This document shows positions 6,881-30,993 of a stretch of 64,000 nt of DNA, piece by piece. Numbering within the stretch: position 1 is the first letter of the stretch; each line of letters opens with the position of its first letter. The notes under the pieces are model-generated. The model ran no database searches. It worked only from the letters and a program-made list of their open reading frames with translations, and was not told the DNA's origin. The position numbers were made by a program, and so were the translations under genes. Source of the DNA: Thioalkalivibrio sp. ALJ16 (GTDB lineage Bacteria > Pseudomonadota > Gammaproteobacteria > Ectothiorhodospirales > Ectothiorhodospiraceae); the NCBI RefSeq assembly GCF_000377345.1, contig NZ_KB898038.1, positions 62,001-126,000 on the forward strand, in the 5' to 3' direction.

Positions 6881-7010
6881 CGGTCTCCTTCGCGGGCTTG
6901 TCAGGACTACAACACTCAAACTCAGGATTGTACTTGGCTGCTCACCGAAATCTACTCGCCTGCGCGCCGGGTTCCACCTTCGAGCTTCGTATTATCAAGA
7001 ATTCAAGAAC

Positions 7011-7950: not shown

Positions 7951-8032
7951 GCTATTTCAACCCGCCTCAGACCGTCAAGAAATCATGGGTGTCCTCTTCT
8001 TCGGCGTGTGGAAAAGATGGGTGTCCTCTTCT

Positions 8033-8380
8033 TCTCGCCAGATGGGTGCCGGTCTCTACCGCCGTGGCGTGATAGCGGTCCTCCCAGAACGCCCCCTTCC
8101 GGCCCTTTCGTCGGTTGTAAGCCTGGCCGACCCGCCCCGCGATCAACTGCATGGCCCGCGGGATCTCGCTACGGCCCTCATCCCGCACCAGCAGATGCAC
8201 GTGGTTAGACGTCACGATGTAGTTCAGCACACACAGCCCGTAGCGCCGCCGCGCCTGATACAGCCAGTACCGCCATAACCGGCGGTCGCGCGCAAACTTC
8301 AGCAGAAACTCCTGCTTATGGCACCGGTGTGTGATATGCCAGACATGGCCCGGCAAATGATGGCGATTCGCCCGTGGCAT
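8033..8380 (-). pseudogene. Truncated RAYT copy
   Basis: From ATG 8380 the product is almost identical to the first 116 residues of the RAYT at 7097-7834, then diverges abruptly after THLAR at about 8033 into unrelated sequence that stops at 7967. The C-terminal half, including the YIDLNMVRAG block of the intact copy, is missing, so this is a nonfunctional duplicate. Confidence 0.8.
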
Positions 8381-8478
8381 GACTTCCCTCCCTGGAAGGC
8401 CCATTTCCTAGCCAAAATCGCCGCGATAAGCTCGAATTATACCCTTTCTAGACCATTTTCCTTCGATCTTTCTGAGGC

Positions 8479-8661
8479 TTACCGTGGTCCGACCCACTGC
8501 TGTCCGCGCAGGCGCTCCAGCACCCAGCCGCGCCGGTCCTCGTAGCTCTTGCCCGAATAGGAATCCTCGCCACACAGGAACGCGCGGCGAACACAGCGAC
8601 AAATACAGTGGTAATACGGCGTCGTCTCGACCGAGACGAGCTCCTTCCTGGCTCGCGTCAT
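8479..8661 (-). pseudogene. Fragment of a different IS200-like transposase
   Basis: The first about 53 residues (MTRARKELVSVETTPYYHCI, then CRCVRRAFLCGED) match the start of a second RAYT-type family. The frame then runs into the GGTCCGACCC repeat and ends. The catalytic HxH and Tyr regions are lost. Remnant only. Confidence 0.6.
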
Positions 8662-8762
8662 CTCCGGACCCTCCCTGGTCCATGCACTCCCCCTGAAACC
8701 TAGACAGCCCGCCTCAGACCGTCAAGAAATCATGGGTATCCTCTTCTTTCGCTATTAGTCCG

Positions 8763-9611
8763 TTACGCATCATGGGTAACCTCCCCTTCGTGATCATGAC
8801 TCTCGACCTTCTGCCAGTCCTCTACGTGCCTCTTCAACCGATCCAAGTTCCATATCGTAAATGGCACATCTGCCCACGCCTGCATTTCAGCACATAGACT
8901 CGGATGTGGGGTACCATTGGTGCTCCAGTCGGACTTCCCATCGTCGGTAACAAGAACACAATGGCTGAAACCCATTTGAAACTCTCTAGCCATATCCAAC
9001 CCGACGAGAAACTCACTCCAAACAAAAAAATCGCCAAATTCACTATCCTTAAATCCAGGTGGCGTCCGTGTCGTACGTCGTGCCTGCGCAACTTCCATCA
9101 AACTTGGCCGGTCCACCTGCGGAAATAATGCACTTGAACACAGCGTCCTAAAAAGCGTCCTCAGTTCCTCAGCAACACGCCCTTGCAGCACATGCCCGTA
9201 GCGTTCTTCGAAGTCACGCACAAGGACCTCAGCTCGCTGAGAAAAATCAGAATAGGAGGGGTCAAGCTCTTTAAGCGTATCGCCGAGCGCACTGAAATGT
9301 TTCTTAAGCTTACCTCCCAATCCCTCCACCCCACCCATATAGTTATTCCAAAACTCTATAAGAACTTGACTTGGAACGATAACGGGCCCTTGGTGTCTCG
9401 AACCTAAGTAGTCAACAATATCCGCACCCGCCCTGCCTTTCCCCATATTGAGGAGAACATTTGCGTCAATTCCGATAGCAAAAGGTTCGTCGACGGTATC
9501 CACCTTACCGTCGTCCAGTGCGCAGACGAGATGGGTCGCCAGATCAAGACGCTGACTACCACCAAGAAGGTCCTTCAACCGGGCAAGCCTTTCTATTTCG
9601 GATGATTCCAT
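8763..9611 (-). CDS. PIN-like domain protein (DUF4935-type)
   Basis: 282 residues. The central region resembles PIN-like nucleases: IGIDANVLL (Asp49), VLIEFWNNY (Glu86), KDSEFGDFFVW (Asp189/Asp194) and VLVTDDGKSDW (Asp223/224) provide the expected acidic residues for metal-dependent RNA or DNA cleavage. Its ATG directly follows the TAA of the DUF262 gene with no spacing, so the two are co-translated. Base composition is clearly more AT-rich than the neighbours, consistent with transfer. Likely the nuclease partner in a two-gene defence or toxin module. Confidence 0.7.
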   Translation of the reverse strand: MESSEIERLARLKDLLGGSQRLDLATHLVCALDDGKVDTVDEPFAIGIDANVLLNMGKGRAGADIVDYLGSRHQGPVIVPSQVLIEFWNNYMGGVEGLGGKLKKHFSALGDTLKELDPSYSDFSQRAEVLVRDFEERYGHVLQGRVAEELRTLFRTLCSSALFPQVDRPSLMEVAQARRTTRTPPGFKDSEFGDFFVWSEFLVGLDMAREFQMGFSHCVLVTDDGKSDWSTNGTPHPSLCAEMQAWADVPFTIWNLDRLKRHVEDWQKVESHDHEGEVTHDA

Positions 9612-11252
9612 TTAATGCCTCTCCGGAAACCAGATCTTCGCCGCGACCTCGGCCAACGCCATCCCTCGTTCCTCGACCTCCGCCGTACTCCATACGTCGC
9701 GGTGCTCAAGGTCCTCAAGGTCGCCACACGTGAGGGCGTATGGAAGCAGATTGTTCTTAAATCCATCCCAAGACGAGGCGCCTGGTGGTCGTCGCTCAAC
9801 ACTCGCCAGAAATGTATTACCCATCGTGGACCCCCAGAACGCGAACTCATCGTCTGGGAAGCCATGCCAGTCCGTTGCCTGCCTGGGTCGAATCAAGTGC
9901 GTTGTGCCTTCTGAAGTTGGCGTTATAGTATTCTGTTGGTTGCAACGATGAAGGAAGCCAAGGGTGGCCTTGTTAAATGATCGTTTCCGCAGTTGCTCAA
10001 CAAATTCCCCAGGTTCGTGATTAAGATCGTCGAGGTCCTCGAGTGGCTTCACCCAATCCCCGGTGCCCGCAACCTCATACGCAGCTTCACTCAATCGGCG
10101 CTCGACGTTCCCCGTTCCAAGATTGCCGACGACTATACGGCGCACGACCAGGCGCAAGACGCTCTCCATGCCCTCCTTTGCGTTGATCGATTGTGACAGC
10201 GCCATTAGGAGCGGCCTTACCGTGATGACACCAAGGTCTCTGAGCGCTGAGAAGATGGCTAGCCACTCAGGATCGGCAGGCCCTTCAACAGTTGGATCAA
10301 CCATCTGGAGATACAAGGGAAGCTGGCCTTCCAGAGCATCCATAAGCTCTGGGACACTGGGCGGCTTCCGTTTTGAGCGTAGCTGCTTAGCCCTTCCCCT
10401 TGCGAGATAGGAGTACAGATCCTTAGGGGCGACGTGCCCCGCGCGTAGTGTCGCAACGTGCCGTATGAACTGAACGAGGTTTACCGGTCCGTCCTGAGGG
10501 GATAAGGGTCTGGCGACACTTTGCCACCGGTTGTAGGCTGAAGTACGTTCACGCGCCGGAGTCTGGCTCAAAATATAATTCTTCAGAAGCTCCGCGGTGG
10601 TAAGATCTTTCCCCCTCGTGTTGATAACTTCGAAAACCCGGTAAGCGGACGCCGGGTCTGGGTGGACGAAGGACGCGACGTACACTTGATTTGTGAGGTA
10701 GTCTGCCCAAGCCCCCAATCGCCTAAAAGGATCCTGATCAAGATCGGTCGCCAGTTTCTGTCTTATGACCTCAGAAGCAGCGACCAGCCGCGCAGAAACA
10801 TCTTCGTCTCCAGACTCCCTTTCAACAATTTCGGACGACTCTAGTAATTCTTCGAGCGTACTATTATCGCGTTCATTACTTAGCCTAACTCGCGCGAATT
10901 GCTCATCGGTTTCGTAATTGATTGACTTCAAAAAGTCGGCTTGTATCCTATCAGCGAGAGCATTTCGTCCATGCCGCACCGCTTCATGGTAGAGAGCTGC
11001 GGCAAGAAGCGTCAGAGTTAGGATCCGCTGCTGACCATCAACGACGTGCTTCCGGCCTTCGTCGTCCGTTAAGACGAATAGGCCTAGAAAGTAAGCTCCT
11101 TCATCCATCCCCTGCGAAAGGTCTTCCCAGAACTCTCTGACTTCGTCTACCTCCCATGCGTATTCTCGTTGGAATGGAGGCACACTGAATGTATTACCTG
11201 AGAAAAATGCGCCGACGGAAGTAGCACTAGCACTCAAGGGAGTTTCTATCAC
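9612..11252 (-). CDS. DUF262 (GmrSD/ParB-like NTPase) protein
   Basis: 546 residues from GTG 11252, which has GAGG upstream and places VIETPLSASATSV where DUF262 proteins usually begin; a TTG at 11333 would start inside the nrd terminator. DUF262 hallmarks are clear: PPFQREYAWE (about residues 25-34), VVDGQQRILT (about 70-79) and VFEVINTRGKDLT. The C-terminal part resembles the DUF1524 HNH region of GmrSD-type enzymes (THLIRP, MGNTFL, final AAKIWFP) but the HNH pattern is diverged. DUF262 families act in restriction of modified DNA and phage defence. Paired with a PIN-like nuclease, so nucleotide-driven sensing with a separate nuclease is a reasonable guess. Confidence 0.75.
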   Translation of the reverse strand: MIETPLSASATSVGAFFSGNTFSVPPFQREYAWEVDEVREFWEDLSQGMDEGAYFLGLFVLTDDEGRKHVVDGQQRILTLTLLAAALYHEAVRHGRNALADRIQADFLKSINYETDEQFARVRLSNERDNSTLEELLESSEIVERESGDEDVSARLVAASEVIRQKLATDLDQDPFRRLGAWADYLTNQVYVASFVHPDPASAYRVFEVINTRGKDLTTAELLKNYILSQTPARERTSAYNRWQSVARPLSPQDGPVNLVQFIRHVATLRAGHVAPKDLYSYLARGRAKQLRSKRKPPSVPELMDALEGQLPLYLQMVDPTVEGPADPEWLAIFSALRDLGVITVRPLLMALSQSINAKEGMESVLRLVVRRIVVGNLGTGNVERRLSEAAYEVAGTGDWVKPLEDLDDLNHEPGEFVEQLRKRSFNKATLGFLHRCNQQNTITPTSEGTTHLIRPRQATDWHGFPDDEFAFWGSTMGNTFLASVERRPPGASSWDGFKNNLLPYALTCGDLEDLEHRDVWSTAEVEERGMALAEVAAKIWFPERH

Positions 11253-11337
11253 ACTAAGAGCCTCAGATTTTCTGCCATATAGACGGGGGAAGAACGACAG
11301 TCTTGTGCGCGACTCTGAGCAAACTGTTCGCAATCAC

Positions 11338-11365
11338 AAGAAAGGCGCCTTATGGCGCCTTTCTT
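11338..11365 (-). terminator. Rho-independent terminator of nrdAB
   Basis: Perfect 12-bp stem AAGAAAGGCGCC / GGCGCCTTTCTT with a 4-base loop (11350-11353), 55 bp after the nrdB stop. The A- and T-rich stem ends make it potentially bidirectional. It also separates nrdAB from the DUF262 gene on the same strand. Confidence 0.8.
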
Positions 11366-11420
11366 ATTGAAAACACAAGCATCCTCTGCTTCCTTCCTGA
11401 TCGGTGACGTTTCGTCCGCC

Positions 11421-12659
11421 TCAATCCCAGCTCAACGCCCCGCCCGTCTGATACTCGGTAACCCGCGTCTCAAAGAAGTTCTTCTCCTTCTTCAGATCGA
11501 GCACCTCGCTCATCCACGGGAACGGGTTATCAGCCCCCGGGTACAGCTCGGCCAGGCCGATCTGGGCGCAGCGGCGGTTGGCGATGAAGTGCAGGTATTC
11601 CTCGAACATCCCGGCATTCATGCCGAGCACGCCGCGGGGCATGGTGTCGCGCGCGTACTGCGCCTCGAGCTCGACCGCGTCGCGGATCAGGGTGCGCATC
11701 TCGTTCTTGAAGTCTTCGGTCCACAGGTGCGGGTTTTCGAGCTTGATCTGGTTGATCACGTCGATGCCGAAGTTCATGTGCATGGACTCGTCGCGCAGGA
11801 TGTACTGGAACTGCTCGGCGACGCCGGTCATCTTGTTGCGCCGGCCCATGGAGAGGATCTGCACAAAGCCGACGTAGAAGAAGATCCCTTCGAACACGAC
11901 GTAGAAGGCGATCAGCTCGCGCAGCAGCTTCTGGTCCGCCTCCGGGGTGCCGGTGCGGAAGTTCGGGTCCGCCAGGTGCTTGGTGAACGGCAGGGCCCAC
12001 TCCGCCTTGGTGGCCACGGAGGGCACCTCGCGGTACATGTTGAAGATCTCGCCTTCGTCCAGGCCCAGGCTTTCCACGCAGTACTGGTAGGCGTGGGTGT
12101 GCAGCGCCTCCTCGAAGGCCTGGCGCAGCAGGTACTGGCGGCACTCGGGGTTGGTGATATGGCGGTACACGGCCAGCACCAGGTTGTTCGCCACCAGCGA
12201 GTCGGCGGTGGAAAAGAAGCCCAGGTTGCGCTTGACGATGGTGCGCTCGTCCTCGGTCAGCCCGTTCGGGTCCTTCCACAGGGCGATGTCCGCGTTCATG
12301 TTGATTTCCTGCGGCATCCAGTGGTTGGCGCAGCCGTCCAGGTACTTCTGCCAGGCCCACTTGTACTTGAAGGGCACGAGCTGGTTGAGGTCCGCGTGGC
12401 AGTTGATGATCTTCTTGTCATCCACACGGATGCGCTCGGCCCCCATCTCCAGGTCTTCCAGACCGGTGCCGGTCAGGGCGTCTTCGTTGGGCTCGGCCAG
12501 CGGCTGGCCGGCGTTTTCCGGCTCCGGCGAGACGCTGGGCGCGGCGCCGGCGGTGCTCATCAGGGCTTCGTTCTCCTGAAAGCCCATGCCGGGGCGGACG
12601 GCGGGTTCCTTCTGGCCTTCGCCTTTGATGGCTGCGATCGGATCGTCCCAGGAAAGCAT
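11421..12659 (-). CDS. nrdB: Ribonucleotide reductase class Ia, beta subunit
   Basis: 412 residues. Provides the diiron-tyrosyl radical used by NrdA to reduce ribonucleoside diphosphates to deoxyribonucleotides. Iron-ligand motifs are visible: [13 protein letters not shown] (Glu, His and a nearby Tyr) and DESMHMNFG (Glu, His). The N-terminal about 80 residues before the conserved core ([12 protein letters not shown]) are acidic and low-complexity. The C-terminal tail GGALSWD is the expected NrdA-docking peptide. GAGG lies before ATG 12659. It lies 108 bp downstream of nrdA in one operon. Confidence 0.95.
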
Positions 12660-21513: not shown

Positions 21514-21584
21514 CGGTCGGCTGTCATCCCTCGGGCGCACGCCAGCGGCCGAGGCCGCGTGGTTCATGATCGAGGCTTCAGATG

Positions 21585-21837
21585 CCGGAAATGCCGGGGC
21601 CAGACATGCGAAAGGGGCCACTCGGGCCCCTTTGCAGGATTTGGCGGAGAGTACGGATTACGCCCGGCTGCGCCGGGCGCCCTTCGGGCCGCCTTCGCTG
21701 CGCTGCGGCGTTCCGGTGTCGCTGCGCGCCACCGGTCGAACCATCATTCTTATATCTCGGGTTCGAATCCCGGAAATGCCGGGGCCAGACGTGCGAAAGG
21801 GGCCACTCGGGCCCCTTTGCAGGATTTGGCGGAGAGT
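21585..21837. repeat. 68-bp direct repeat ending in tRNA-Ser 3' sequence
   Basis: 21585-21652 and 21770-21837 are identical over 68 bp except one base, 185 bp apart. Each contains a strong hairpin (AAAGGGGCC-ACTC-GGGCCCCTTT) and ends in TGGCGGAGAGT, the reverse complement of a tRNA-Ser 3' end with CCA. The second copy merges into the left attachment site. This may mark earlier integrations at the same place. Confidence 0.65.
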
Positions 21838-21840
21838 GAG
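21827..21840. repeat. attL
   Basis: TGGCGGAGAGTGAG, reverse complement of the last 14 bases of the tRNA-Ser gene, 140 bp upstream of the integrase start. Identity with the right copy stops on both sides. Confidence 0.75.
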
Positions 21841-21980
21841 TCTGCCGATCACCGACCGGACACTACCCATATCGACGCTGTAAGCCCCTAATACTTCGAC
21901 CTTTCTGCTTTACCCTTGTAGTCGATAGTAGCGCAGCGTAGGCTATAGTTACAAGCACTATTTGGGGATAGGTAAAGGGA

Positions 21981-23174
21981 ATGCCTCGTAAGGCGGAGGA
22001 AATGGGGGCGCTGGCGATCAAGCGCCTTGAGCATCCAGGAGAGTACACCGTTGGGGGCGTGGCGGGCCTGCGCGTCCGCGTCTACGACAACGGGCACAAG
22101 TACTGGCTTCTGCGCGCGACGATCGCCGGCCGCGTCCGAGAGATAGGCATTGGGCCCTATCCCGAGGTGACGCTCGCCAAGGCCCGCGAGGCCGCGTCCG
22201 ACATGCGTATGCAGATCCGCGAAGGTATCGACCCGCTCGCGGAGCGCAGAGCCGCGAAGGACGCTCTGGCTGCTGCGACCGCAAAGGCCCTGACATTCAG
22301 CGATTGCACCGACCGCTACCTCGCGAACAAGAGTGCCGGTTTCCGGAACGAAAAGCATCGGCGGCAATGGCGATCCTCGCTGGAGCAATATGCAGACCCG
22401 ATCATAGGGCGGCTGCCGGTCGACAGGATCGAGCTGGCACACGTCCTGGAGGTGTTGCAGCCCGTATGGCGCACCCGCACAGAAACGGCCAGTCGCGTCA
22501 GGGGCCGAATGGAGAAGGTGCTCGACTACGCGACCGTGAGCGGCTATCGCGACGGCTCGAACCCTGCGAGATGGCGCGGCAACCTGGACGCGATTCTGCC
22601 GGCCCCTTCCAAGCTCAAGAAGGTTCGGCACCACCGCGCCCTACCCTGGGCTGAGGTGCCGCCATTCATGGCGGCATTGCGCGAGCGCAGCGGGACCGCC
22701 GCTCAAGCCCTGCAGTTCCTCGTCCTGACCGCGACCCGATCCGGTGAAGTCCGCGGCGCGACATGGGACGAGATCGACCTCGAATCCAGCACGTGGTCCA
22801 TACCCGCCGAACGCATGAAAGCGGGCAGAACTCACGTGGTCCCATTGTCGGACGCGGCGCTCGAGATTCTGGAGGCCCGCCCCGATCGAGACGGCCTTGT
22901 CTTCCCTGGGCAGCGAGGCGGGATGCTGAGCGATATGTCACTGAGCTCCGTGCTGAAACGCATGCAGGTCGACGCCACGGTCCACGGCTTCCGATCCTCG
23001 TTCCGGGACTGGGTGTCTGAAACCACCCGCTACCCGCACGAGGTCGCCGAGATGGCCCTCGCGCACACGATCCCGAACGCCACAGAGCGGGCCTATCGGC
23101 GCGGCGACCTACTGGAGAAACGACGCGCCCTGATGGACGAATGGGCCGCGTACATCGTGGAGGCAGAGAAATGA
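21981..23174 (+). CDS. int: Tyrosine recombinase integrase (P4-like, DUF4102 N-terminus)
   Basis: 397 residues. The N-terminal arm-binding domain (VGGVAGLRVRV, YWLLRATIAGRVREIGIGPYP) is typical of P4-type integrases. The catalytic set is complete: Arg253 in TATRSGEVRG, Lys280, His335 and Arg338 in HGFRSSF, His362 and nucleophile Tyr372 in ERAYRRGD. It should catalyse integration into and excision from the tRNA-Ser site. It lies beside attL, at the opposite end from the intact tRNA. AAAGGGA precedes ATG 21981. Confidence 0.93.
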   Translation: MPRKAEEMGALAIKRLEHPGEYTVGGVAGLRVRVYDNGHKYWLLRATIAGRVREIGIGPYPEVTLAKAREAASDMRMQIREGIDPLAERRAAKDALAAATAKALTFSDCTDRYLANKSAGFRNEKHRRQWRSSLEQYADPIIGRLPVDRIELAHVLEVLQPVWRTRTETASRVRGRMEKVLDYATVSGYRDGSNPARWRGNLDAILPAPSKLKKVRHHRALPWAEVPPFMAALRERSGTAAQALQFLVLTATRSGEVRGATWDEIDLESSTWSIPAERMKAGRTHVVPLSDAALEILEARPDRDGLVFPGQRGGMLSDMSLSSVLKRMQVDATVHGFRSSFRDWVSETTRYPHEVAEMALAHTIPNATERAYRRGDLLEKRRALMDEWAAYIVEAEK

Positions 23175-23707
23175 CCGGCACTCGACCGACCGACAACTGG
23201 GAGGCGGCCGTCGAACGCGTGAAGGCCACCGGGAAGGGCTGGGAAGCGCTGCTGTATCACGCGGCCCGGCTACTGCGGGAAGGCCGCGCCCTGCCGCCGC
23301 CGCTGGCGGACTTCATTGCCGGGGGGCTCGACGAGATCCGCGAGACCGAACACAAGGGGGCCGCCAAGCTGTTCGGTTGCCATCATGCGCGGGGCCGCCG
23401 GGGGAACGCGTCCAGGGGGCTGAAACGCGCTATCGACGTTGAAATTCTGATGCGGATGACCGGCGTTTCCCAGATCCAGGCGGCTGCTGCGCTGACCCAG
23501 GATGACACCCTCAACAACAAGGAGCAGCTCGCACCGTCTACCTGGGTTCGGGCGCACGACGATCACAAGGAGGACGCCTGCGCGATCATCGCATCGGGCA
23601 AACCAGAAGGCCCCGAGCCCCGCCCGATTGATTGGCTAACGGAGTCCGAAGAAAAAGCCGCCAGGATCGCAAAGCGTATGAAGAATAGGGGCCCTAATCC
23701 CGCATAG
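23171..23707 (+). CDS. Unknown element protein, 178 residues
   Basis: Starts with an ATGA overlap on the integrase stop, so it is translated with it. The sequence has an amphipathic N-terminal part (LYHAARLLREGRALPPPLAD) and a middle region (ILMRMTGVSQIQAAAALTQD) that resembles a helix-turn-helix, followed by a charged C-terminus. No family recognised. Possibly a DNA-binding accessory to integration or regulation, by position only. Confidence 0.6.
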   Translation: MTGTRPTDNWEAAVERVKATGKGWEALLYHAARLLREGRALPPPLADFIAGGLDEIRETEHKGAAKLFGCHHARGRRGNASRGLKRAIDVEILMRMTGVSQIQAAAALTQDDTLNNKEQLAPSTWVRAHDDHKEDACAIIASGKPEGPEPRPIDWLTESEEKAARIAKRMKNRGPNPA

Positions 23708-23768
23708 ATCGCCCCTCCCGCACTCGCCAATCTGTACCCGTCACCACCAAAAACGACGAGGTACGGTA

Positions 23769-23969
23769 ATGGCTGACACGACGAACGAATCGGTGTACTT
23801 GTCGGAGCGCGACATTGCCCGCAGGTACAGCATCCACCCCAAGACCGTTTGGCCCTGGATTCATAACCAGGGGTTCCCGCAGCCGATCCGGCTGAGCCCG
23901 CGATGCACCCGTTGGCGTCTGGAGGACCTGTTGGCCTGGGAAGCCCGCCGCGCAGGCGGTGCGGCATGA
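23769..23969 (+). CDS. AlpA-like excisionase/transcriptional regulator
   Basis: 66 residues with a winged-helix DNA-binding pattern: LSERDIARRYSIHPKTVWPW, GFPQPIRLSPRCTRW and EDLLAWE. This is the usual form of AlpA/excisionase regulators on P4-like satellites and integrative islands, where they turn on or direct excision. GAGG lies before ATG 23769. Its stop overlaps the next start. Confidence 0.8.
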   Translation: MADTTNESVYLSERDIARRYSIHPKTVWPWIHNQGFPQPIRLSPRCTRWRLEDLLAWEARRAGGAA

Positions 23970-24196
23970 GGCCCGCCAACAGAAAAGCGCTGGCCGAGGG
24001 GGCGGCACAGCGCTTTGGGGGCGAGCTACACGGTCACAAGCTCACGTCTGAGCATAGCACAGAAGATCTGTTTCGCATCGCCAATCGGCGGGCTCACGTA
24101 ATCGGCTGCTACCGAAGGGGCCCCGATCGCACGCGGGCCATACTGCGATGCCTGCGGGCCCTCAAGGCCGCACTGGCCAAGGGGGCGCGGCCATGA
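23966..24196 (+). CDS. Unknown small basic element protein, 76 residues
   Basis: Begins in an ATGA overlap with the AlpA-like gene. Lys/Arg/Ala-rich (KALAEGAAQRFGGELHGHKL, ILRCLRALKAALAKGA). No family recognised. Coupled both upstream and downstream, so it is probably a real gene of the element's replication/regulation run. Confidence 0.5.
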   Translation: MRPANRKALAEGAAQRFGGELHGHKLTSEHSTEDLFRIANRRAHVIGCYRRGPDRTRAILRCLRALKAALAKGARP

Positions 24197-24522
24197 CTCG
24201 GAAAGTGCCGCCGTATGCGAAGCGCCATGCCGAAGCCCTACGCCACCCGCCGCACACCGTCTGGATCGCGGCCGGGCCGAATGCCTGGAAGTGGGCCCGG
24301 CAGCGACCGAGCCACGTAGTCCTGGTCGCCCCACCCGAGGAAGATCCCGCCGCTCTGGACTGGCGCATGTGCCGAGGCCATGACCCGGTGCTGGTCGTTC
24401 GCACGGGACCAGCCGAAGGCGCGCAGGTACGCGGGCTGATCGCGGCCCTGTTGCGGGATGGTGTCGAGCGCGTGCTGGACGAAGCCGGAACGCTATTCGT
24501 GCCGGAGGTGCGCCATGCCTGA
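24193..24522 (+). CDS. Unknown element protein, 109 residues
   Basis: ATGA overlap with the previous gene. The sequence alternates short strands and helices (HTVWIAAGPNAWKWARQ, SHVVLVAPPEEDPAALDW, DPVLVVRTGPAEGAQVRGLI), suggesting a small alpha/beta domain. No family recognised. Its last eight bases overlap the start of the ATPase gene. Confidence 0.5.
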   Translation: MTRKVPPYAKRHAEALRHPPHTVWIAAGPNAWKWARQRPSHVVLVAPPEEDPAALDWRMCRGHDPVLVVRTGPAEGAQVRGLIAALLRDGVERVLDEAGTLFVPEVRHA

Positions 24523-25600
24523 AACCGTGGTTATCCCTGTCGAGCGGACGGAGCCGCGGTTCAAGCTGTTACACGTTGCCGAGCTCGAGTTCCGGCCACC
24601 GCGTTTTTTAGTGCGGGACTACCTCGAGGCCGAATCTCTGGCGTTGGTATTCGGCGATCCCGGGTGCGGCAAGTCGTTTCTGGCCGTCGATCTGGCCTGC
24701 TGTATTGCAACCGGTGCGGACTTCCACGGCAACCCCACCACGCAGGGCCCCGTTGTGTACGTCGCGGGAGAGGGCCACAACGGCCTGAAGCGGCGTTTCG
24801 TGGCATGGGAGACCCACACCGGCCAGAGCGCCGCAGACGCGCCCCTGTACGTGTCGAGCGCGGCCGCAGCCCTATGCGATCCCGATTCCGCGCAGGCAGT
24901 CGTGACCGCCGTGGATGCGGTGCCGACCGATGGGCCGCCCGCCCTGGTCGTGATCGACACCGTGGCCCGCAACTTCGGCCCGGGAGACGAGAACAGCACC
25001 AGCGATATGGGCGTGTTCATCCAGGCGGCCGACCGTATCCGCACCCGGTACGGCTGCACGGTGCTACTCGTCCATCACAGCGGCCACGCGGACAAAGGGC
25101 GTGCCCGAGGGGCTACCGCCCTGCGGGGTGCCCTGGACGCTGAATATCGAGCGGACAAGGACGAAGCCGGCACCGTCCGCGTGGAGGCGTCCAAAATGAA
25201 GGACGCACCCTTTCCCCAGCCCTTGGCGTTCGAGCTGCGCAGCGTGCCCCTCGGTATCGAGGACCACGACGGTCGCGAGGTCACGTCCGCCGCGCTGGTA
25301 TCCACGACCTATGAGCCGCCCGCCAAGCCGTCCGGGCGCCAGGGCAAGTGGAAGCAACTCGCCCTGGACGAGCTGGCCCGTTTGTATGAGTCCAGGCGGG
25401 CGAACCTTGAGCGCGGTGGGTTCGACCCTGACACCGCCCGGGTTGAGGTCTCCGAGTGGCAACAGCAATGCCGGGATGCCGGGATGCCGAAGCAACGATG
25501 GTCCGATGTTCGCCGGGCCTGTCTCGACTCCGAGCTGGTTTCCATTGAGCACGGGTTTGCCTATCCGAGGGTCCGGAAGTCCGGTCCGTCCGGTTCCTGA
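24515..25600 (+). CDS. RepA-like AAA ATPase (AAA_25), putative replicative helicase
   Basis: 361 residues. RecA-fold ATPase of the type encoded by plasmid RepA/mobile-element helicases: Walker A GDPGCGKS (47-54), Walker B LVVIDT with Asp147, and the VLLVHHSGH sensor block (183-190), all near the expected spacing. The C-terminal part carries a charged helix-turn-helix-like region (WKQLALDELARLYESRR, VSEWQQQCRDAGMPKQRW). CCGGAC repeats start inside its 3' end, supporting a role in replicating the excised element. It overlaps the preceding gene by eight bases. Confidence 0.8.
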   Translation: MPETVVIPVERTEPRFKLLHVAELEFRPPRFLVRDYLEAESLALVFGDPGCGKSFLAVDLACCIATGADFHGNPTTQGPVVYVAGEGHNGLKRRFVAWETHTGQSAADAPLYVSSAAAALCDPDSAQAVVTAVDAVPTDGPPALVVIDTVARNFGPGDENSTSDMGVFIQAADRIRTRYGCTVLLVHHSGHADKGRARGATALRGALDAEYRADKDEAGTVRVEASKMKDAPFPQPLAFELRSVPLGIEDHDGREVTSAALVSTTYEPPAKPSGRQGKWKQLALDELARLYESRRANLERGGFDPDTARVEVSEWQQQCRDAGMPKQRWSDVRRACLDSELVSIEHGFAYPRVRKSGPSGS

Positions 25601-25678
25601 AGGAAACCGGACCGGACCGGACGCCCTTAACCGGACAAGCGGACCCTAACCGGACCAAAACCGGACCCGTAACCGGAC
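25571..25678 (+). repeat. CCGGAC iteron-like repeats and hairpin, candidate replication origin
   Basis: Seven exact CCGGAC and one GCGGAC lie between 25607 and 25678, several extended to AACCGGAC. Three inverted copies (GTCCGG) end the upstream gene at 25571-25593. The two orientations form a long imperfect hairpin at 25579-25622 that straddles the ATPase stop codon. AT-richer sequence follows immediately. Repeats next to a RepA-like helicase suggest an origin; a regulator-binding array or terminator is the alternative. Confidence 0.55.
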
Positions 25679-25709
25679 CGAAAATCACGCAGAATCAATA
25701 GTCTGCACC

Positions 25710-25738
25710 TTGACACACCAACCAATCCGATAGACAAT
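25710..25738 (+). promoter_or_regulatory. Sigma70-like promoter
   Basis: TTGACA at 25710-25715, 17-bp spacer, GACAAT at 25733-25738, followed by AGGGGG and the ATG at 25761. The -35 is perfect. It would drive the second gene run of the element. Confidence 0.55.
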
Positions 25739-25760
25739 ACCTATCATGTAGGGGGCTCCA

Positions 25761-26144
25761 ATGGACCAAGACGAATTCGAGCAACGGCTCCGCGAAGACT
25801 CCAGCCGGATGTTCTCCAGCGAGGACGCCGGACGGCGGTACTTCATCCGCAAGCCGCCCACCTTCCCCAAGATCGAATCCTTCTCCGAATTCCAGAAGGC
25901 GCACGACGCCATCGTCGCGGCTGCCTCCGAGCGCCTGAACGAGATTGTCGGGGCCGGCCTGTCCACCCGGGACGTCGCGCTGGCCAGCCAGATCGAGGGC
26001 ATCAACATGAACTTGTCCCTGCGCGCGCTAGAGGCCGCCGGTGATCCTCGGTGGACGGTCCTGGATTCGCGGGTCGAGAGCCTGCGCCAAGGGGTCGCGA
26101 TTGCTATGGAAATCTGGAAGCAAAAGCGAGGGGGTGACGCATGA
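25761..26144 (+). CDS. Unknown element protein, 127 residues
   Basis: Acidic, mostly helical protein (MDQDEFEQRLREDSSRMFSS, then FSEFQKAHDAIVAAASERL). No recognised family. Preceded by a good promoter and ribosome-binding site, and the first of a run of five tightly coupled genes. Its last four bases overlap the start of a 29-codon ORF. Confidence 0.6.
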   Translation: MDQDEFEQRLREDSSRMFSSEDAGRRYFIRKPPTFPKIESFSEFQKAHDAIVAAASERLNEIVGAGLSTRDVALASQIEGINMNLSLRALEAAGDPRWTVLDSRVESLRQGVAIAMEIWKQKRGGDA

Positions 26145-26230
26145 ACATCCCGCTGATACACGCGCAGATGAGTTTCCTCGCCACCTATATGGCCGCGCGC
26201 CAATACCGAGCACCGGAGCCCACGCGATGA
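26141..26230 (+). CDS. 29-residue small ORF coupled to both neighbours
   Basis: ATG 26141 overlaps the TGA of the upstream gene, and its own TGA overlaps the ATG at 26227 of the next gene, both as ATGA. The peptide starts MNIPLIHAQMSFLATYMAAR and ends in EPTR. The exact fit between two coupled genes suggests either a real micro-protein or a translational relay. It resembles no family I know. Confidence 0.45.
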   Translation: MNIPLIHAQMSFLATYMAARQYRAPEPTR

Positions 26231-26637
26231 ACCGACCCAAGCCCCGATCGTTCACGCCCGAGCGCGACCCCATGATCCCGTCCGGGCCGGCCAGCCAGTA
26301 CCTGACGAAGAACCGCGGCCGCCCGAGCGACCAGCCCAAGGCGCAGAACCCCCAGCGCGTGAAGATCCCACGGGCCGCTCGCAAGGTGGCGCGGGCGTCG
26401 ATTCTGGCCAAGCTCTCGACCGCTCCCCTGGCCTTCACCGGGGAGAGCGGGGAGCAATGGCTGGGGCTGGCAGAGATCGGCCTTGTCCTGGGCCTCGACG
26501 TGGCCGAAGTGGCAGACCAGCACGCACGCGGCGAAGGGCCGCCGCTCGAGATGCGCAAGAACGAACAGGGCCACCACGAGCTGATGGGCTCGGTAACGAA
26601 CCTGACCCTGTACCTGATTACCGAAGCGACGAGGTAG
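26227..26637 (+). CDS. Unknown element protein, 136 residues
   Basis: Basic, proline-rich N-terminus (MNRPKPRSFTPERDPMIPSG, then GRPSDQPKAQNPQRVK) and a more globular C-terminal half (EQWLGLAEIGLVLGLDVAEV). No family recognised. Starts in an ATGA overlap with the 29-codon ORF. Confidence 0.55.
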   Translation: MNRPKPRSFTPERDPMIPSGPASQYLTKNRGRPSDQPKAQNPQRVKIPRAARKVARASILAKLSTAPLAFTGESGEQWLGLAEIGLVLGLDVAEVADQHARGEGPPLEMRKNEQGHHELMGSVTNLTLYLITEATR

Positions 26638-26641
26638 ACCC

Positions 26642-27280
26642 ATGGCAGCGAAACCCGATTTCAAGAGCAAGCTGGGTTCTCTGGCCGAAAGCCAGAAAGC
26701 CATCCAGGACGAGATGAAGGGCGCGCACGATGGCCTGATGGCAAAGATCCAGGCCAAGCGCGATGAGCTGAAGGAGATCACCAGCGCCGCCCCGAACGTT
26801 GGCGAGATCCTTCACCGCGCCCAACTGTCGATCGACGAGATGGCCGGGCGGTATGAGAAGCGCCTTAAGGGCGCGTTTGTGGAGTCGCGGACAGCCGAGG
26901 CGATGCTCCAGACGGGGGCAGCGATCCCGGACAACAAGAACTTGTTGGGGCCGCACGGTGCGGTGCTGCGCAGTCGCATGCAAGAAAACTGGCGCAAGCA
27001 ACTGGTGCTCGACCTGTTTGCGCCCGGACCAGGACCTGCCAACCAGGAGCACCGGGACCACCAGATCGATGGAACGGATACGGCCATGCTGATCGCCTGG
27101 CTGTTCCGCGACGAACTGGTCGAGCGCATGCGCACCTTCGCGGAGACCCACGCCCCCGCCGGCGAATCCCGCGCAGCCGATATCGAACGGCTGAAGGCGG
27201 AGATCGCAGACCTCGAAGAACAGGCCGCGCAGATCCGCCGGGAAGCCTCCGAGGCCGGTTTGCACCTGGAGGCCGCATGA
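26642..27280 (+). CDS. Unknown coiled-coil element protein, 212 residues
   Basis: Highly charged helical protein with likely coiled coils at the N-terminus (LAESQKAIQDEMKGAHDGLM, AKIQAKRDELKEI) and the C-terminus (ADIERLKAEIADLEEQAAQI). The middle contains LLGPHGAVLRSRMQENWRKQ. No family recognised. Starts four bases after the previous stop and ends in an ATGA overlap with the Mor-like gene. A scaffold or tail-assembly partner of the tape measure is possible but is inference from position. Confidence 0.55.
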   Translation: MAAKPDFKSKLGSLAESQKAIQDEMKGAHDGLMAKIQAKRDELKEITSAAPNVGEILHRAQLSIDEMAGRYEKRLKGAFVESRTAEAMLQTGAAIPDNKNLLGPHGAVLRSRMQENWRKQLVLDLFAPGPGPANQEHRDHQIDGTDTAMLIAWLFRDELVERMRTFAETHAPAGESRAADIERLKAEIADLEEQAAQIRREASEAGLHLEAA

Positions 27281-27633
27281 ACACGCGCGTTATCGAGGAA
27301 ATCGCCGAACTGATCGGGTTCCGCGGCGCGTATGAGCTGAGTCTCCAGCGCGCCGGGACGAGCTTCTACGTTCCTGTCGACCCAGCCCCTCAACACTGGC
27401 TGAACGACATCCTAACCCCCGATGAGATTCAGGCTCTGGCCGCTCGGTTCGGCGGGGAAACGATCACCCTCCCCCCCCTTCGCGACAACACCCGGCACCG
27501 TATTGAGGTTGCGCTGAAGAACAAGCTCGAGGTTCGGATGGTGGCGATGCTCGCGAATCGCAGTGAGCGGTACGTGGCGCGCGTGAAGGAAGAACTGGCG
27601 CAGGCGGGCCGGCTGCCGAGCGATGCGGCGTAG
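27277..27633 (+). CDS. Mor-like transcriptional activator
   Basis: 118 residues. The C-terminal half resembles the Mor/C family of phage Mu middle/late activators: DEIQALAARFGGETITLPPL, then a helix-turn-helix (LEVRMVAMLANRSERYVARV). The first half repeats a weaker form of the same pattern (IAELIGFRGAYELSLQRAGT). Likely activates the gene just downstream, the tape measure, whose own promoter region follows. ATGA overlap with the previous gene. Confidence 0.6.
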   Translation: MNTRVIEEIAELIGFRGAYELSLQRAGTSFYVPVDPAPQHWLNDILTPDEIQALAARFGGETITLPPLRDNTRHRIEVALKNKLEVRMVAMLANRSERYVARVKEELAQAGRLPSDAA

Positions 27634-27734
27634 GGGACCCTGTGAGGCCCTAGCAGGCGGGCACGCAGAACACCTCGGATGTCGGCAGTTTTTGAGACGC
27701 ATTCGCATTTGTTTATTCCCACCAGGAACACGCC

Positions 27735-30362
27735 ATGGCTGACAAGCGCAGCACCGTTGAATTAATCTTTCAGGGGATCGACCGAACGGGCGAAGCCACC
27801 CAGGCCGCGCTACGCAACGCACAGTCGTTCAGCGATTCCATCGGCAACGTCACCGCACCGATCGCGGACTTCACCAAGAAGGCCGTGGCGTTCGAGGCCG
27901 CCTTGCTCGGGGCCGGCGCTGCCATCACCGCATTCTCGATCAAGGCCGCCGGGGACTTCGATTCGGCGTTCCGTGAAATCTCGACCCTTATCGACCAGCC
28001 GGTCGAGGATCTCGGGGAATTCCGCGATGCCATCCTCGAATACTCGCAGACGAGTACGCAGCCCCTGGAGTCGATCACGTCCGCGATCTACAGCGCGATC
28101 TCCGCGGGCGTCGATTATGCCGATAGTGTGGAAGCGGTGGCGCAGGCGGAACAGCTCGCTGTAGCGGGCAAAGCCGACCTCAATGACTCCCTGACGGTCC
28201 TGGTCTCCAGTCTCAACGCCTACGGCCTTGAGATGGAAGAAGCGGCCCGGTTCAGCGATGCGCTGTTTACGGCGGTCCAGGAGGGCCAGACGACCCTGCC
28301 GGAGCTTGGCAACAGCCTCTCGCGTGTCACTGGCCTGGCCGCGACCGGTGGGGTCGAGTTCGAGGAATTGCTGGCGGCGATCTCTGCGCTGACCGCGACC
28401 GGCACGCCCACGAACGAGGCCATCACCCGGATTCAACAGGCGCTGTCGAACATCATCAACCCGACGCAGCAAGCGCGGACGATGGCCGCAGAACTCGGGA
28501 TCGAGTTCAACGCGACCACGCTACGGTCCGAGGGCCTGGCCGGGATGCTGGACATGGTGGCGCAGGCTACCGGGGGCAGCGAGGAACAGATGGGCAAGCT
28601 GTTCGGTAGCACGAACGGCTTGCTGGCGGTCCTGGACCTGACGGGCAACGCGGCGGAAGGCTTCGCGGGCTCGCTGGACAGCATGGCGGACAACGCGGGC
28701 GCGACTGATCGCGCGTTCGCGGACATGGCCGGGAGCGTCGAACAGCAGAATCAGCGCGTGGCCAACAGCCTGCGCGGGCTCGCGATCGAGATTGGCGGGC
28801 CGTTGCTCGAGCAATACGGCGGCGTCACAGACGCGCTGACGGCCGTTTTCCAGGCGGTCGGGGCGAATGTGCGCGATGGCCAGTTGGGCGGCCTGGTGGG
28901 CGTCGTGGAGGGCATTCTGGCGGATACCGAGTCAGTGTTCCGCAGCATGGCCGAAAACATGGGCGAGGCGCTGGAAGATGCCGACCTTTCGGGGTTCGAG
29001 CGTGGCATTGATGCGCTGCGGGAAGCCGTACAGAACCTGTTCCAGAATCAGGACTTGAGCACCGCCGAAGGGCTCGCCAGTGCCATGACCACCCTGGCCG
29101 ATGCGTTCGCGGGTCTGTCGCAGTTTACCGCGGGCGTGATCGAGTCGTTCCAGTTCCTGTTCGACCTGATGGTCCGGGCCGGTTCCGCGACGGCAGAGCT
29201 GGACGATAGCCTGTTCCGCCTGGCCGGCCGGTTCGGGGGTATCGCCACGCAGATCGACCTGGTGTTGCCGCTGCTGAACGGCCTGCTGGGGCTGATGATC
29301 CTCAACCAGGGCAAGAATCTGGTATTCGGGGCCAATGCGTCCGCGGCGGCCCTGGCGAATCTGGCGAAGTGGCTGGGGCCTGCGGGGCTTGCGGGCGCGG
29401 CCGGCTGGGGCATCGGATCGTTCCTGAACGACAACATCATCGATCCTCTGGTCAACGCGGTCACGGAGAACGAGAACACGCTCGGGACGTGGATCTACGA
29501 GGTGATCCACGGCACCGAGGAATGGGAAAGCGCCACGCGCGATATGAGCACTGCGCAGCGCGATCTTGCAAAGGACCTGGGCAGCACCAACGAAGCCCTG
29601 GAGAAGCAAGGCCGGGACTACGACCGCATCGTCAACGAAATGACCGAGGCCGACGATATCGCCCGGGAATCGAAGCGCCGCCTGGCTGCGGAGTTCGAGG
29701 CTCAGGGCCTCCAGTGGGACGCCACCACCGGGAAGATTGGCGAGACCAAGACGATCATCGACGGCACCGAGGAAAGCAACCGGCGCTGGGTCGAGACCAT
29801 GGAAGGCGGCGTCACCACGTTCACGCAGGTGGGCAAGGTGTTCCGTGGCGAGATGGAAGGTGCCAAGACCGCCACGCAGGAAGTGGCCGAACAGTCCGAC
29901 GAACTCAAGATCGCGCTGGAAGAGCTCGCGAGTAACGAGCGCATCAAGTACATGGAGTTCGAGGCGCAGATGAACGTGGCCGAAGTCCAGGCGCAGGCGC
30001 AGGAAGTCGAGGCGGTGTTCGGGTCGATCAACAACACGATGGACAGCACGGCGGATCTTCTCGGCGGCCTGTTCGGGCAGTTGGAAGGCGCGTCACGCTG
30101 GGACCAGTTGGATATCCGCAGCCAGATCGAGCGCGAGAACCGAATCCGCGAGGAAGCCCACGAACGGCAGATGCGGATGGCGGATGCCCATATCGACGCG
30201 CTCAAGGAGCGCACCAAGGCCATGCGCCGCGGCGACAGCATGATTAAGGTGGACGGCGCCGGCCTCCAGCCGCACCTCGAAGCGTTCATGTGGGAGATCC
30301 TGCGCACGATCCAGGTGCGCGTGAACGAGGATGGATTGGACATGCTTCTCGGGACGTCTTAG
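27735..30362 (+). CDS. Phage tail tape-measure protein (TP901 family)
   Basis: 875 residues. The N-terminal third fits the TP901 core of tape-measure proteins (FDSAFREISTLIDQPVEDLG, then SAGVDYADSVEAVAQAEQLA and LTVLVSSLNAYG). A hydrophobic patch (LVLPLLNGLLGLMIL, near residue 515) and a charged helical C-terminus with Gln/Glu/Arg coiled coil follow. The tape measure sets phage tail length and helps DNA entry. No other tail gene is on this element. It has its own ribosome-binding site (AGGA) and a possible promoter (TTGAGA at 27692, TATTCC at 27714), and is followed by a terminator. Confidence 0.85.
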   Translation: MADKRSTVELIFQGIDRTGEATQAALRNAQSFSDSIGNVTAPIADFTKKAVAFEAALLGAGAAITAFSIKAAGDFDSAFREISTLIDQPVEDLGEFRDAILEYSQTSTQPLESITSAIYSAISAGVDYADSVEAVAQAEQLAVAGKADLNDSLTVLVSSLNAYGLEMEEAARFSDALFTAVQEGQTTLPELGNSLSRVTGLAATGGVEFEELLAAISALTATGTPTNEAITRIQQALSNIINPTQQARTMAAELGIEFNATTLRSEGLAGMLDMVAQATGGSEEQMGKLFGSTNGLLAVLDLTGNAAEGFAGSLDSMADNAGATDRAFADMAGSVEQQNQRVANSLRGLAIEIGGPLLEQYGGVTDALTAVFQAVGANVRDGQLGGLVGVVEGILADTESVFRSMAENMGEALEDADLSGFERGIDALREAVQNLFQNQDLSTAEGLASAMTTLADAFAGLSQFTAGVIESFQFLFDLMVRAGSATAELDDSLFRLAGRFGGIATQIDLVLPLLNGLLGLMILNQGKNLVFGANASAAALANLAKWLGPAGLAGAAGWGIGSFLNDNIIDPLVNAVTENENTLGTWIYEVIHGTEEWESATRDMSTAQRDLAKDLGSTNEALEKQGRDYDRIVNEMTEADDIARESKRRLAAEFEAQGLQWDATTGKIGETKTIIDGTEESNRRWVETMEGGVTTFTQVGKVFRGEMEGAKTATQEVAEQSDELKIALEELASNERIKYMEFEAQMNVAEVQAQAQEVEAVFGSINNTMDSTADLLGGLFGQLEGASRWDQLDIRSQIERENRIREEAHERQMRMADAHIDALKERTKAMRRGDSMIKVDGAGLQPHLEAFMWEILRTIQVRVNEDGLDMLLGTS

Positions 30363-30412
30363 CCAGCGCCCCCAAGCGGTCCGCCGGGAACCGTGCTCCT
30401 GCAATCCCGGTG

Positions 30413-30458
30413 AACCCCGCAGACGAGACCGCCAGTCCTCTGTCCGCGGGGTTTTTTT
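30413..30458 (+). terminator. Rho-independent terminator after the tape-measure gene
   Basis: AACCCCGC (30413-30420) pairs with GCGGGGTT (30446-30453), followed by a T-run. Loop of 25 bases. Clear end of the element's rightward transcript. Confidence 0.8.
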
Positions 30459-30462
30459 GTGC

Positions 30463-30789
30463 CTACCGCAGGCTGCGGCGTTCCTCAATCGAGAGCGGTT
30501 CCCGTTCATCCGTCCAGCGGGCGAGGCGAGCGCCGGACTCGCGGCGATCCTTCAACGCGGCCTGGGCTTGGTCACGGGTGTCGAACGGCCCGGCGACGAT
30601 ATCCCCTAGCAGGCGGCGCCCATCGGGTAGATCGCGGTCCTGGACCACGTAGAAGCGGTCGAACTCGGGCTGGCGGCGGGTGATGCCCTGGGCAAGAGCC
30701 AGCCTGTCGAGATAGCGCTGGTAGTCGCTGCGGGCTGCGGGGGTGTCGCTGTAGCCGTAGTGATCGGCCCATTCGTGGAAGCTGTACAT
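30463..30789 (-). CDS. Unknown small element protein, 108 residues
   Basis: ATG 30789 has AGGAG eight bases upstream, which excludes the longer frame reaching into the tRNA. Starts MYSFHEWADHYGYSDTPAAR; the rest is Asp/Arg-rich (YVVQDRDLPDGRRLLGDIVA). No family recognised. It is convergent with the tape-measure gene and sits beside attR; control of excision or superinfection is possible from position only. Confidence 0.6.
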   Translation of the reverse strand: MYSFHEWADHYGYSDTPAARSDYQRYLDRLALAQGITRRQPEFDRFYVVQDRDLPDGRRLLGDIVAGPFDTRDQAQAALKDRRESGARLARWTDEREPLSIEERRSLR

Positions 30790-30902
30790 GGTCTTTCTCC
30801 TGTCGTTGGGTAAACAGGGAAAGCAGCCAGGTAGATCGTTAGGGGATACAGCGGGGGACGGTCGTTGCGACCGTCCATAACCCACTGATTTTATTGAATA
30901 GG

Positions 30903-30916
30903 TGGCGGAGAGTGAG
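30903..30916. repeat. attR within the tRNA-Ser 3' end
   Basis: TGGCGGAGAGTGAG, identical to 21827-21840, forming the last 14 bases (including CCA) of the minus-strand tRNA-Ser gene. Confidence 0.75.
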
Positions 30917-30993
30917 GGATTCGAACCCTCGATGGGCTTTTGACCCATACTCCCTTAGCAGGGGAGCGCCTTCGACCACTCGGCCAACTCTCC
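30903..30993 (-). tRNA. serX: tRNA-Ser (GCT anticodon)
   Basis: 91 bases. Reading the minus strand: acceptor GGAGAGT pairs with ACTCTCC before G-CCA; D-arm GGCCGAGTGGTCGAAGGC; anticodon loop CTGCTAA giving GCU; long variable arm (TATGGGTCAAAAGCCCATCG) of class II tRNAs; T-arm GGGTTCGAATCCC. CCA is encoded. It is the insertion site of the 9.1-kb element. A candidate promoter is TTTCAA (31034-31029), 17 bp, TATCCT (31011-31006). Confidence 0.95.

What the first reader, a model, noticed from the sequence alone, without database searches (positions are those of the whole stretch)
21827..30916. Minimal tRNA-integrated satellite whose only phage structural gene is a tape measure
Seen: a 9.1-kb element in tRNA-Ser(GCT) with integrase, AlpA-like regulator, RepA-like ATPase with repeats, a run of small genes, and an 875-residue tape-measure protein. 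No capsid, terminase, portal, lysis or other tail gene is present. Known satellites (P4, PICI, cf-PICI) carry integrase, AlpA, replication and packaging or capsid-redirecting genes; I know of none whose cargo is a lone tape measure. Inference: it may reprogramme the tail length of a helper phage, or give helper tails that suit its own particles. A decayed prophage is the main alternative, but overlapping intact genes argue against decay.
Basis: partly seen in the sequence, partly recalled or inferred. Interest (0 to 1): 0.85.

Follow-up and report, generated by a model that had tools for sequence, protein, structure and literature searches.

The report
Phage satellite carrying a tail ruler
A small mobile DNA element in a soda-lake bacterium carries one gene for a phage's tail-length ruler and no other recognisable phage particle part, so it probably inserts that ruler into the tails of a helper phage; this trick was first proven in cholera satellites in 2026, and this looks like a separate, unusually minimal version.

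Summary
A 9,076-bp element in Thioalkalivibrio lies between 14-nt direct repeats (21827-21840, 30903-30916); the second is the 3' end of tRNA-Ser(GCT). Two relatives show the empty site. Scans of its 12 called genes found no other virion gene. T. thiocyanoxidans ARh2 has the same order in the same tRNA, plus a small terminase gene (terS); dN/dS of the TMP pair is 0.25, so this is not decay. Related 8-10 kb elements carry terS alone, or terS plus a lone capsid protein; more distant backbone relatives carry head-gene sets, like cf-PICIs. The closest full-length phage TMPs are in PS3-like siphophages. Satellite TMPs are no longer unprecedented: V. cholerae PLEs build chimeric tails with theirs, and TMPs were predicted in cf-PICIs (PMC12987554, 2026). 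Best reading: a new satellite family whose TMP replaces the helper's. That step is inferred; the helper is unknown. Verdict: real, a new variant of a known kind.

The parts
21827..21840 (.). left attachment repeat TGGCGGAGAGTGAG
   Evidence: longest exact word shared with the tRNA 3' end; empty site in G024 and G011
30903..30916 (.). right attachment repeat, 3' end of tRNA-Ser(GCT)
30903..30993 (-). tRNA-Ser(GCT), the integration target
   Evidence: ARAGORN
21981..23174 (+). tyrosine integrase, 397 aa
   Evidence: three Pfam domains over cut-off; 77% in ARh2
23171..23707 (+). orf2, 178 aa, unknown
   Evidence: 78% in ARh2; no family over cut-off
23769..23969 (+). AlpA-like regulator, 66 aa
   Evidence: phrog_66 1.3e-7, phrog_4745 2.5e-8; Pfam AlpA below cut-off
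23966..24196 (+). orf4, 76 aa, unknown
   Evidence: 63% over residues 20-76 in ARh2
24193..24522 (+). orf5, 109 aa, unknown
   Evidence: 91% in ARh2, 51% in G004
24515..25600 (+). RepA-like AAA_25 ATPase, 361 aa
   Evidence: PF13481 1.6e-43; 97% in ARh2, 46% in G004
25604..25679 (+). iteron-like cluster (five AACCGGAC), candidate replication origin
   Evidence: also after repA in ARh2
25761..26144 (+). orf7, 127 aa, unknown
   Evidence: 52% in ARh2
26227..26637 (+). orf8, 136 aa, unknown
   Evidence: 56% in ARh2, 33% in the G000:C7 element
26642..27280 (+). orf9, 212 aa, predicted helical coiled-coil protein
   Evidence: 97% in the G000:C7 element, 31% in ARh2; AlphaFold2 mean pLDDT 71, all helices
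27277..27633 (+). Mor-like late transcriptional activator, 118 aa
   Evidence: phrog_836 7.7e-17; Pfam Mor below cut-off
27634..27661 (+). conserved noncoding site GGGACCCTGTGAGGCCCTAGCAGGCGGG; candidate late operator or packaging site
   Evidence: 3 sites in 192 genomes at up to 3 mismatches, all in these elements, reversed control 0; no exact match in IMG/VR
27735..30362 (+). full-length siphophage tail tape measure protein, 875 aa
   Evidence: PF10145, PHROGs, TIGR01760; dN/dS 0.25 against ARh2
30438..30458 (+). terminator-like hairpin with T run after the TMP gene
   Evidence: 7 such sites in the region against 6.7 expected in shuffles, so weak
30463..30789 (-). orf12, 108 aa, unknown
   Evidence: 70% in the G000:C7 element; not found in ARh2

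Best explanation
The element is an intact phage satellite of a small (8.4-10.1 kb) family found here in Thioalkalivibrio. It integrates at a tRNA gene, has its own AlpA/RepA/iteron module and a Mor-like late activator, and its late gene supplies a virion subunit. Shown: boundaries, empty site, gene content, the same plan in ARh2, purifying selection on the TMP, and descent of the TMP from a PS3-like siphophage TMP family. Inferred: when a siphophage helper infects, the element excises and replicates, and the Mor-like protein turns on the TMP. The satellite TMP docks on the helper's tail initiation complex through its conserved end, replaces the helper's TMP and gives chimeric tails for the particles that carry the element, as the TMP of PLE satellites does.
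For: Precise insertion and empty site. Same order and same tRNA in T. thiocyanoxidans ARh2, TMP 69% identical over residues 1-873. Genes open in both; dN/dS TMP 0.25 at dS 0.95, int 0.19, RepA 0.03. The two satellite TMPs form one clade (100/99) apart from 18 phage TMPs, so the gene was probably kept while the two elements diverged. The TMP matches phage TMPs end to end; residues 831-875 average 55% identity to the 18 phages, residues 561-740 only 21%. Sister elements carry other packaging or virion genes: terS in G000:C7, terS-like gene plus lone capsid protein in G004, terS plus capsid protein in G041. Precedent: PLE TMPs are built into chimeric tails and needed for transfer (PMC12987554, sections 8 and 9 read).
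Against: No helper, induction, particle or expression was observed. The own genome has no second PF10145 TMP and no hit to two large-terminase families, so no resident helper is evident. The window element lacks the terS of ARh2 and no packaging site is proven. No tail assembly chaperone or hub gene comes with the TMP, unlike in PLE11. One phage TMP (859 aa) is shorter than the satellites'. Only two intact TMP-bearing members were found. Mor (dN/dS 0.69) and orf8 (0.60) are under weaker constraint between the two elements. Distant backbone relatives carry head genes.
Confidence: 0.6

Rival explanations
1. The TMP is an anti-phage weapon: a dominant-negative ruler that spoils the tails of an infecting siphophage and protects the host, without serving satellite particles.
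For: Satellites carry tail-targeting defences (Tai: PMC11364771, passages; Rta: PMC12987554). Residues 641-740 are 77% identical between the two satellites but 15-21% to the three phages shown and 21% on average to 18; a tblastn of this segment found no phage record and a pattern scan of IMG/VR, which reaches close relatives only, none either.
Against: The whole length, both ends included, is under constraint, more than an inhibitor needs. In ARh2 the gene overlaps a terS, which suggests use in particles. PADLOC on 10 of the 12 proteins gave only weak matches (RepA to mad8 1.3e-5 and IetA, orf9 to LmuB 0.088).
Confidence: 0.15
2. The element is a reduced remnant: a cf-PICI-like element or prophage that lost its other head or tail genes, the TMP being a leftover.
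For: Two IMG/VR elements with related int, AlpA and RepA carry head genes: L200 has large terminase (phrog_9 3.5e-62) and major head protein (phrog_617 1.5e-13); L193 has neck, tail terminator and head closure genes.
Against: Same minimal content in two species, open genes, TMP dN/dS 0.25. The three nearest relatives have no such set. The head-gene relatives showed no TMP match.
Confidence: 0.08
3. The TMP is carried by a satellite for a non-assembly role, for example helping DNA entry into a new host or excluding a second phage at the membrane, without replacing the helper's ruler.
For: TMPs act in genome injection (listed in the references of PMC11364771, seen in passages). The membrane-proximal C-terminal end is the best conserved part.
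Against: End-to-end similarity to phage rulers fits the assembly role with no extra assumption.
Confidence: 0.1

Closest known systems
PLE satellites of Vibrio cholerae (TMP/TAC/BhuB chimeric tails, PMC12987554)
   Same: an integrated satellite encodes its own phage-type tape measure
   Different: PLE TMPs come with a tail assembly chaperone (and in PLE11 a baseplate hub) and serve the contractile-tail phage ICP1; here a siphophage-type TMP stands alone and nothing has been tested
Gram-negative PICIs (PMC6092414)
   Same: order integrase, AlpA-like regulator, replication genes with origin, late genes; terS in relatives
   Different: a structural gene is present; 9 kb rather than about 15 kb; Mor-like activator and RepA of another type
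cf-PICIs (capsid-forming PICIs)
   Same: putative tmp genes were reported in some (PMC12987554, figure legend seen); distant backbone relatives here carry head genes
   Different: the window element has no capsid or packaging gene
Marinobacter phage PS3 and related siphophages
   Same: source family of the TMP, end-to-end match (37%)
   Different: complete ~40-kb phages with full head and tail modules; no match to the other satellite genes in PS3

Membership tests
PICI | order integrase, regulator, replication module, late genes | tested here: met
   definition from PMC6092414 section 3
[quoted passage not shown]
   TMP present; so not filed as a PICI
PICI | size typically around 15 kb | tested here: not met
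   9,076 bp; relatives 8.4-10.1 kb
PICI | attachment site never used by prophages | tested here: inconclusive
   17 tRNA-Ser(GCT) loci of the genus examined showed no gene of this element, some cut short by contig ends; prophages were not systematically sought there
PICI | interference with helper reproduction | not testable with these tools
   needs a helper phage
PLE | satellite-encoded TMP | tested here: met
PLE | tmp accompanied by tac gene (all PLEs, PMC12987554) | tested here: not met
   no other tail family among the 12 genes, no similarity to PS3 tail genes; sequence similarity to PLE itself was not tested
cf-PICI | own capsid and packaging genes (recalled) | tested here: not met
   none in the window element
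P4-like satellites | alpha primase-helicase, Sid, Psu, Delta (recalled) | tested here: not met
   no such family in the Pfam and PHROGs scans; the Mor-like protein could play the part of Delta
PS3-like siphophage TMP family | end-to-end homology, placement in a TMP tree | tested here: met

The most novel reading that the evidence does not exclude
A satellite family that hijacks helper particles with a very small, exchangeable set of virion parts. A common integrase-AlpA-RepA backbone carries at its tRNA end a tape measure, a terS, terS plus tape measure, or terS plus a lone capsid protein; in the Mor-bearing members the late gene follows a Mor-like activator and a conserved site. The satellite tape measures keep the phage ends but own a private segment (residues 641-740) that lets satellite tails win over helper tails.
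Probability: 0.35. Interest if true: 0.78.

Novelty: new variant of a known kind. Interest (0 to 1): 0.6.

Why it matters
Satellite control of phage tails was shown for the first time in 2026, in one family (PLE), where the TMP comes with a chaperone. A 9-kb element that carries only the TMP, of siphophage type and in another bacterial group, suggests that tail substitution arose more than once. It offers a minimal case for asking what a satellite gains from its own ruler and how one foreign protein wins assembly over the helper's. The sister elements with a lone capsid protein or terS would allow a comparison of which single part is enough.

Tried and rejected
Plain prophage decay: unlikely on open genes, dN/dS and synteny; descent by reduction stays a rival. 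Recent capture of the TMP from a known phage: not supported, full-length phage matches are 41% or less; the 55% match in L002 covers residues 1-427. Resident helper: no second PF10145, no PF05876, no phrog_2 hit in the own genome; phrog_2 misses some terminases, since a G013 prophage protein matching PS3's large terminase was not among its hits, and its hits in five relatives are weak (18-19 bits). CRISPR spacers: of the short matches I fetched 15 chosen places; 0 of 15 contain a repeated 20-mer. Mor and orf9 relatives in IMG/VR: none confirmed. RNA structure before the TMP: none beyond chance (z 0.69). orf9 model: helices only, no function assigned. Plasmids: 10 records with partial TMP matches, 0 covering 80% of the query. 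Whole element against phage records as DNA: no match. The conserved site: looser 17-nt matches (3 mismatches) occur at several unrelated loci, so only the long form counts. Rows left out of the TMP tree: L002 (broken frame), L124 and L127 (truncated), L130-L132 (partial matches, not extracted), L185 (did not pass my end filter); 20 rows, 18 different.

Full report
What is there. The window is G000:C2:62001-126000. It is placed in Thioalkalivibrio because G021 of the same genus has the TMP on a 66,854-base contig, the length of the T. thiocyanoxidans ARh2 contig NZ_ARQK01000045.1. Between 21827 and 30916 lies an element bounded by the exact repeat TGGCGGAGAGTGAG; the right copy is the 3' end of tRNA-Ser(GCT). 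In G024 and G011 the joined flanks align across the junction in one piece (86% and 87%), with gloA about 0.23 and 0.45 kb from the tRNA. So this is a precise 9,076-bp insertion. A third, shorter copy of the repeat lies outside the element at 21643, and G011 has tandem copies too, so the site may have been used more than once.

Genes. Integrase, orf2, AlpA-like regulator, orf4, orf5, RepA-like AAA_25 ATPase, an iteron-like cluster, orf7, orf8, orf9, Mor-like late activator, TMP, and orf12 on the other strand. All 12 are open with ATG starts; five neighbouring pairs overlap by 4 to 8 bases. Pfam and PHROGs scans of the 12 showed no other virion, packaging or lysis gene; NCBIfam on 8 of the 12 agreed.

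The same plan in ARh2. T. thiocyanoxidans ARh2 has the same order in the same tRNA (L001). tblastn identities: int 77%, orf2 78%, AlpA 69%, orf4 63%, orf5 91%, RepA 97%, orf7 52%, orf8 56%, orf9 28%, Mor 48%, TMP 69%; orf12 had no match. ARh2 has an additional small terminase gene between Mor and TMP (phrog_141 1.7e-14, DUF1441 over cut-off) that overlaps the TMP start. dN/dS: TMP 0.25 (dS 0.95), int 0.19, orf2 0.29, RepA 0.03, orf8 0.60, Mor 0.69. The spread of identities points to mosaic exchange.

Relatives with other late genes. The same genome has an 8.4-kb element in tRNA-Val(CAC) on G000:C7 (41-nt repeat) with orf9 97%, Mor 82%, orf12 70% and a terS 71% identical to that of ARh2, and no TMP match. 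G004 has an 8.9-kb element at tRNA-Ser(GCT): int 69%, AlpA 76%, orf5 51%, RepA 46%, a weakly supported terS-like gene (phrog_57 1.8e-7) and a lone major capsid protein that matches only the capsid half of protease-capsid fusions. G041, in another genus of the family, has terS (phrog_141 2.4e-36) and a capsid protein of the same type. G004 and G041 are not among the 35 of 192 genomes with a phrog_836 match, so the Mor-like gene is not shared by all. More distant backbone relatives in IMG/VR carry head genes: L200 (int about 50%, AlpA 41%, RepA 51%) has large terminase and major head protein, L193 has connector genes. These look like cf-PICIs, and they keep open a descent by reduction.

How rare. 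The window TMP matched 7 of 192 relatives, but only G000 and G021 closely over the full length; G044 has a C-terminal relic. A profile of three TMPs at E 1e-40 matched 6 of 369 genomes of the class, one besides the own genome over the full length (G263), where PS3-like tail genes lie around it. RepA-like matches occur in 20 of 192 genomes.

The tape measure. Of 82 phage records with a match, one, Marinobacter phage PS3, covers at least 80% of the query (37%). A profile scan of IMG/VR gave 22 loci. Five contigs compared with PS3 gene by gene (L002, L111, L113, L115, L119) have PS3-like tail genes on both sides of the TMP; head genes match clearly in L111 and L115 and weakly in L119. In a tree of 2 satellite and 18 phage TMPs the satellites group together (100/99), with L113 as sister on a long branch whose place is unsure. 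17 of 18 phage TMPs are 911-923 aa, one is 859; the satellites' are 875 and 877. Against L111, 49 of 50 inserted residues fall after residues 380-685. Mean identity to the 18 phages is 44-53% at residues 1-260, 55% at 831-875 and 21% at 561-740. Residues 641-740 are 77% identical between the satellites but 15, 20 and 21% to L113, PS3 and L111; no phage record matched this segment, nor did a scan of IMG/VR for close relatives. With two satellites only, this may as well be a feature of an unsampled helper.

A conserved site. Directly after Mor in the three Mor-bearing Thioalkalivibrio elements lies GGGACCCTGTGAGG(C/G)CC(T/C)AGCAGGCGGG. With up to 3 mismatches it occurs 3 times in 192 genomes, exactly these, with 0 for the reversed control, and not exactly in IMG/VR. 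It precedes terS in two elements and the TMP in the window. It may be the operator of the late gene or a packaging site; nothing here decides. A 17-nt match with 3 mismatches lies after the Mor-like gene of a G072 element, but similar weak matches occur elsewhere.

How it probably works. Shown: an intact integrated element with integrase and replication module and a maintained full-length phage ruler. Inferred from known satellites: helper infection leads to excision and replication, the Mor-like protein switches on the late gene, and the TMP enters helper tails in place of the helper's own. The direct precedent is PLE11: its TMP replaces that of ICP1 in the particle, tails are about 10 nm shorter, and deleting tmp cut transfer by about 99.9% in PLE11, 96% in PLE1 and 99% in PLE4 (PMC12987554, sections 8 and 9 read, other parts as passages). 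The helper here is unknown; with no terminase of two tested families in the genome an incoming phage is more likely than a resident one.

Novelty. That paper removes the claim of no precedent: it reports TMPs in PLEs and, in a figure legend, putative tmp genes in PLE-like elements and cf-PICIs. In six searches of the paper library (listings, with passages of four papers read) I found no satellite described with a lone TMP and none described in Thioalkalivibrio; subscription journals and preprints are mostly not held. By the PICI definition (PMC6092414 section 3) this is not a PICI, because it has a structural gene; it works like one. I file it as a new variant of a known kind.

Noticed in passing
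L037 4421-12851 (G000:C7:48000-66000): A second satellite in the same genome, in tRNA-Val(CAC), sharing orf9 (97%), Mor (82%) and orf12 (70%) with the window element but carrying terS and no TMP.
   Followed up: partly
L033 3469-12410 (G004:C3): Element at the same tRNA-Ser(GCT) with a related backbone, a terS-like gene and a lone major capsid protein without the usual fused protease.
   Followed up: partly
L038 1400-12000 (G041:C4): Element of another genus with RepA, terS and a capsid protein of the same stand-alone type.
   Followed up: partly
L039 2430-4961 (G012:C1): Integrase-RepA element with an 843-aa tail protein bearing a transglycosylase domain and weak tape-measure similarity; 8 further ORFs scanned showed no virion gene.
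   Followed up: partly
L031 10002-10229 (G044:C1): Relic of a TMP C-terminus (64% to the window TMP over residues 825-873) beside tRNA-Asn(GTT).
   Followed up: partly
L200 1-10027 and L193 1-12526: IMG/VR elements with related integrase, AlpA and RepA that carry head or connector genes, cf-PICI-like.
   Followed up: partly
window 27634-27661: Noncoding site after the Mor-like gene, found 3 times in 192 genomes, only in the three Mor-bearing elements.
   Followed up: partly
window 21569-21837: Two 84-nt copies, 92% alike, with a hairpin and a tRNA-end-like piece just outside the element.
   Followed up: no
window 7001-12000: Stretch of lower G+C (0.52-0.59) than its surroundings, possibly another acquired region.
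   Followed up: no
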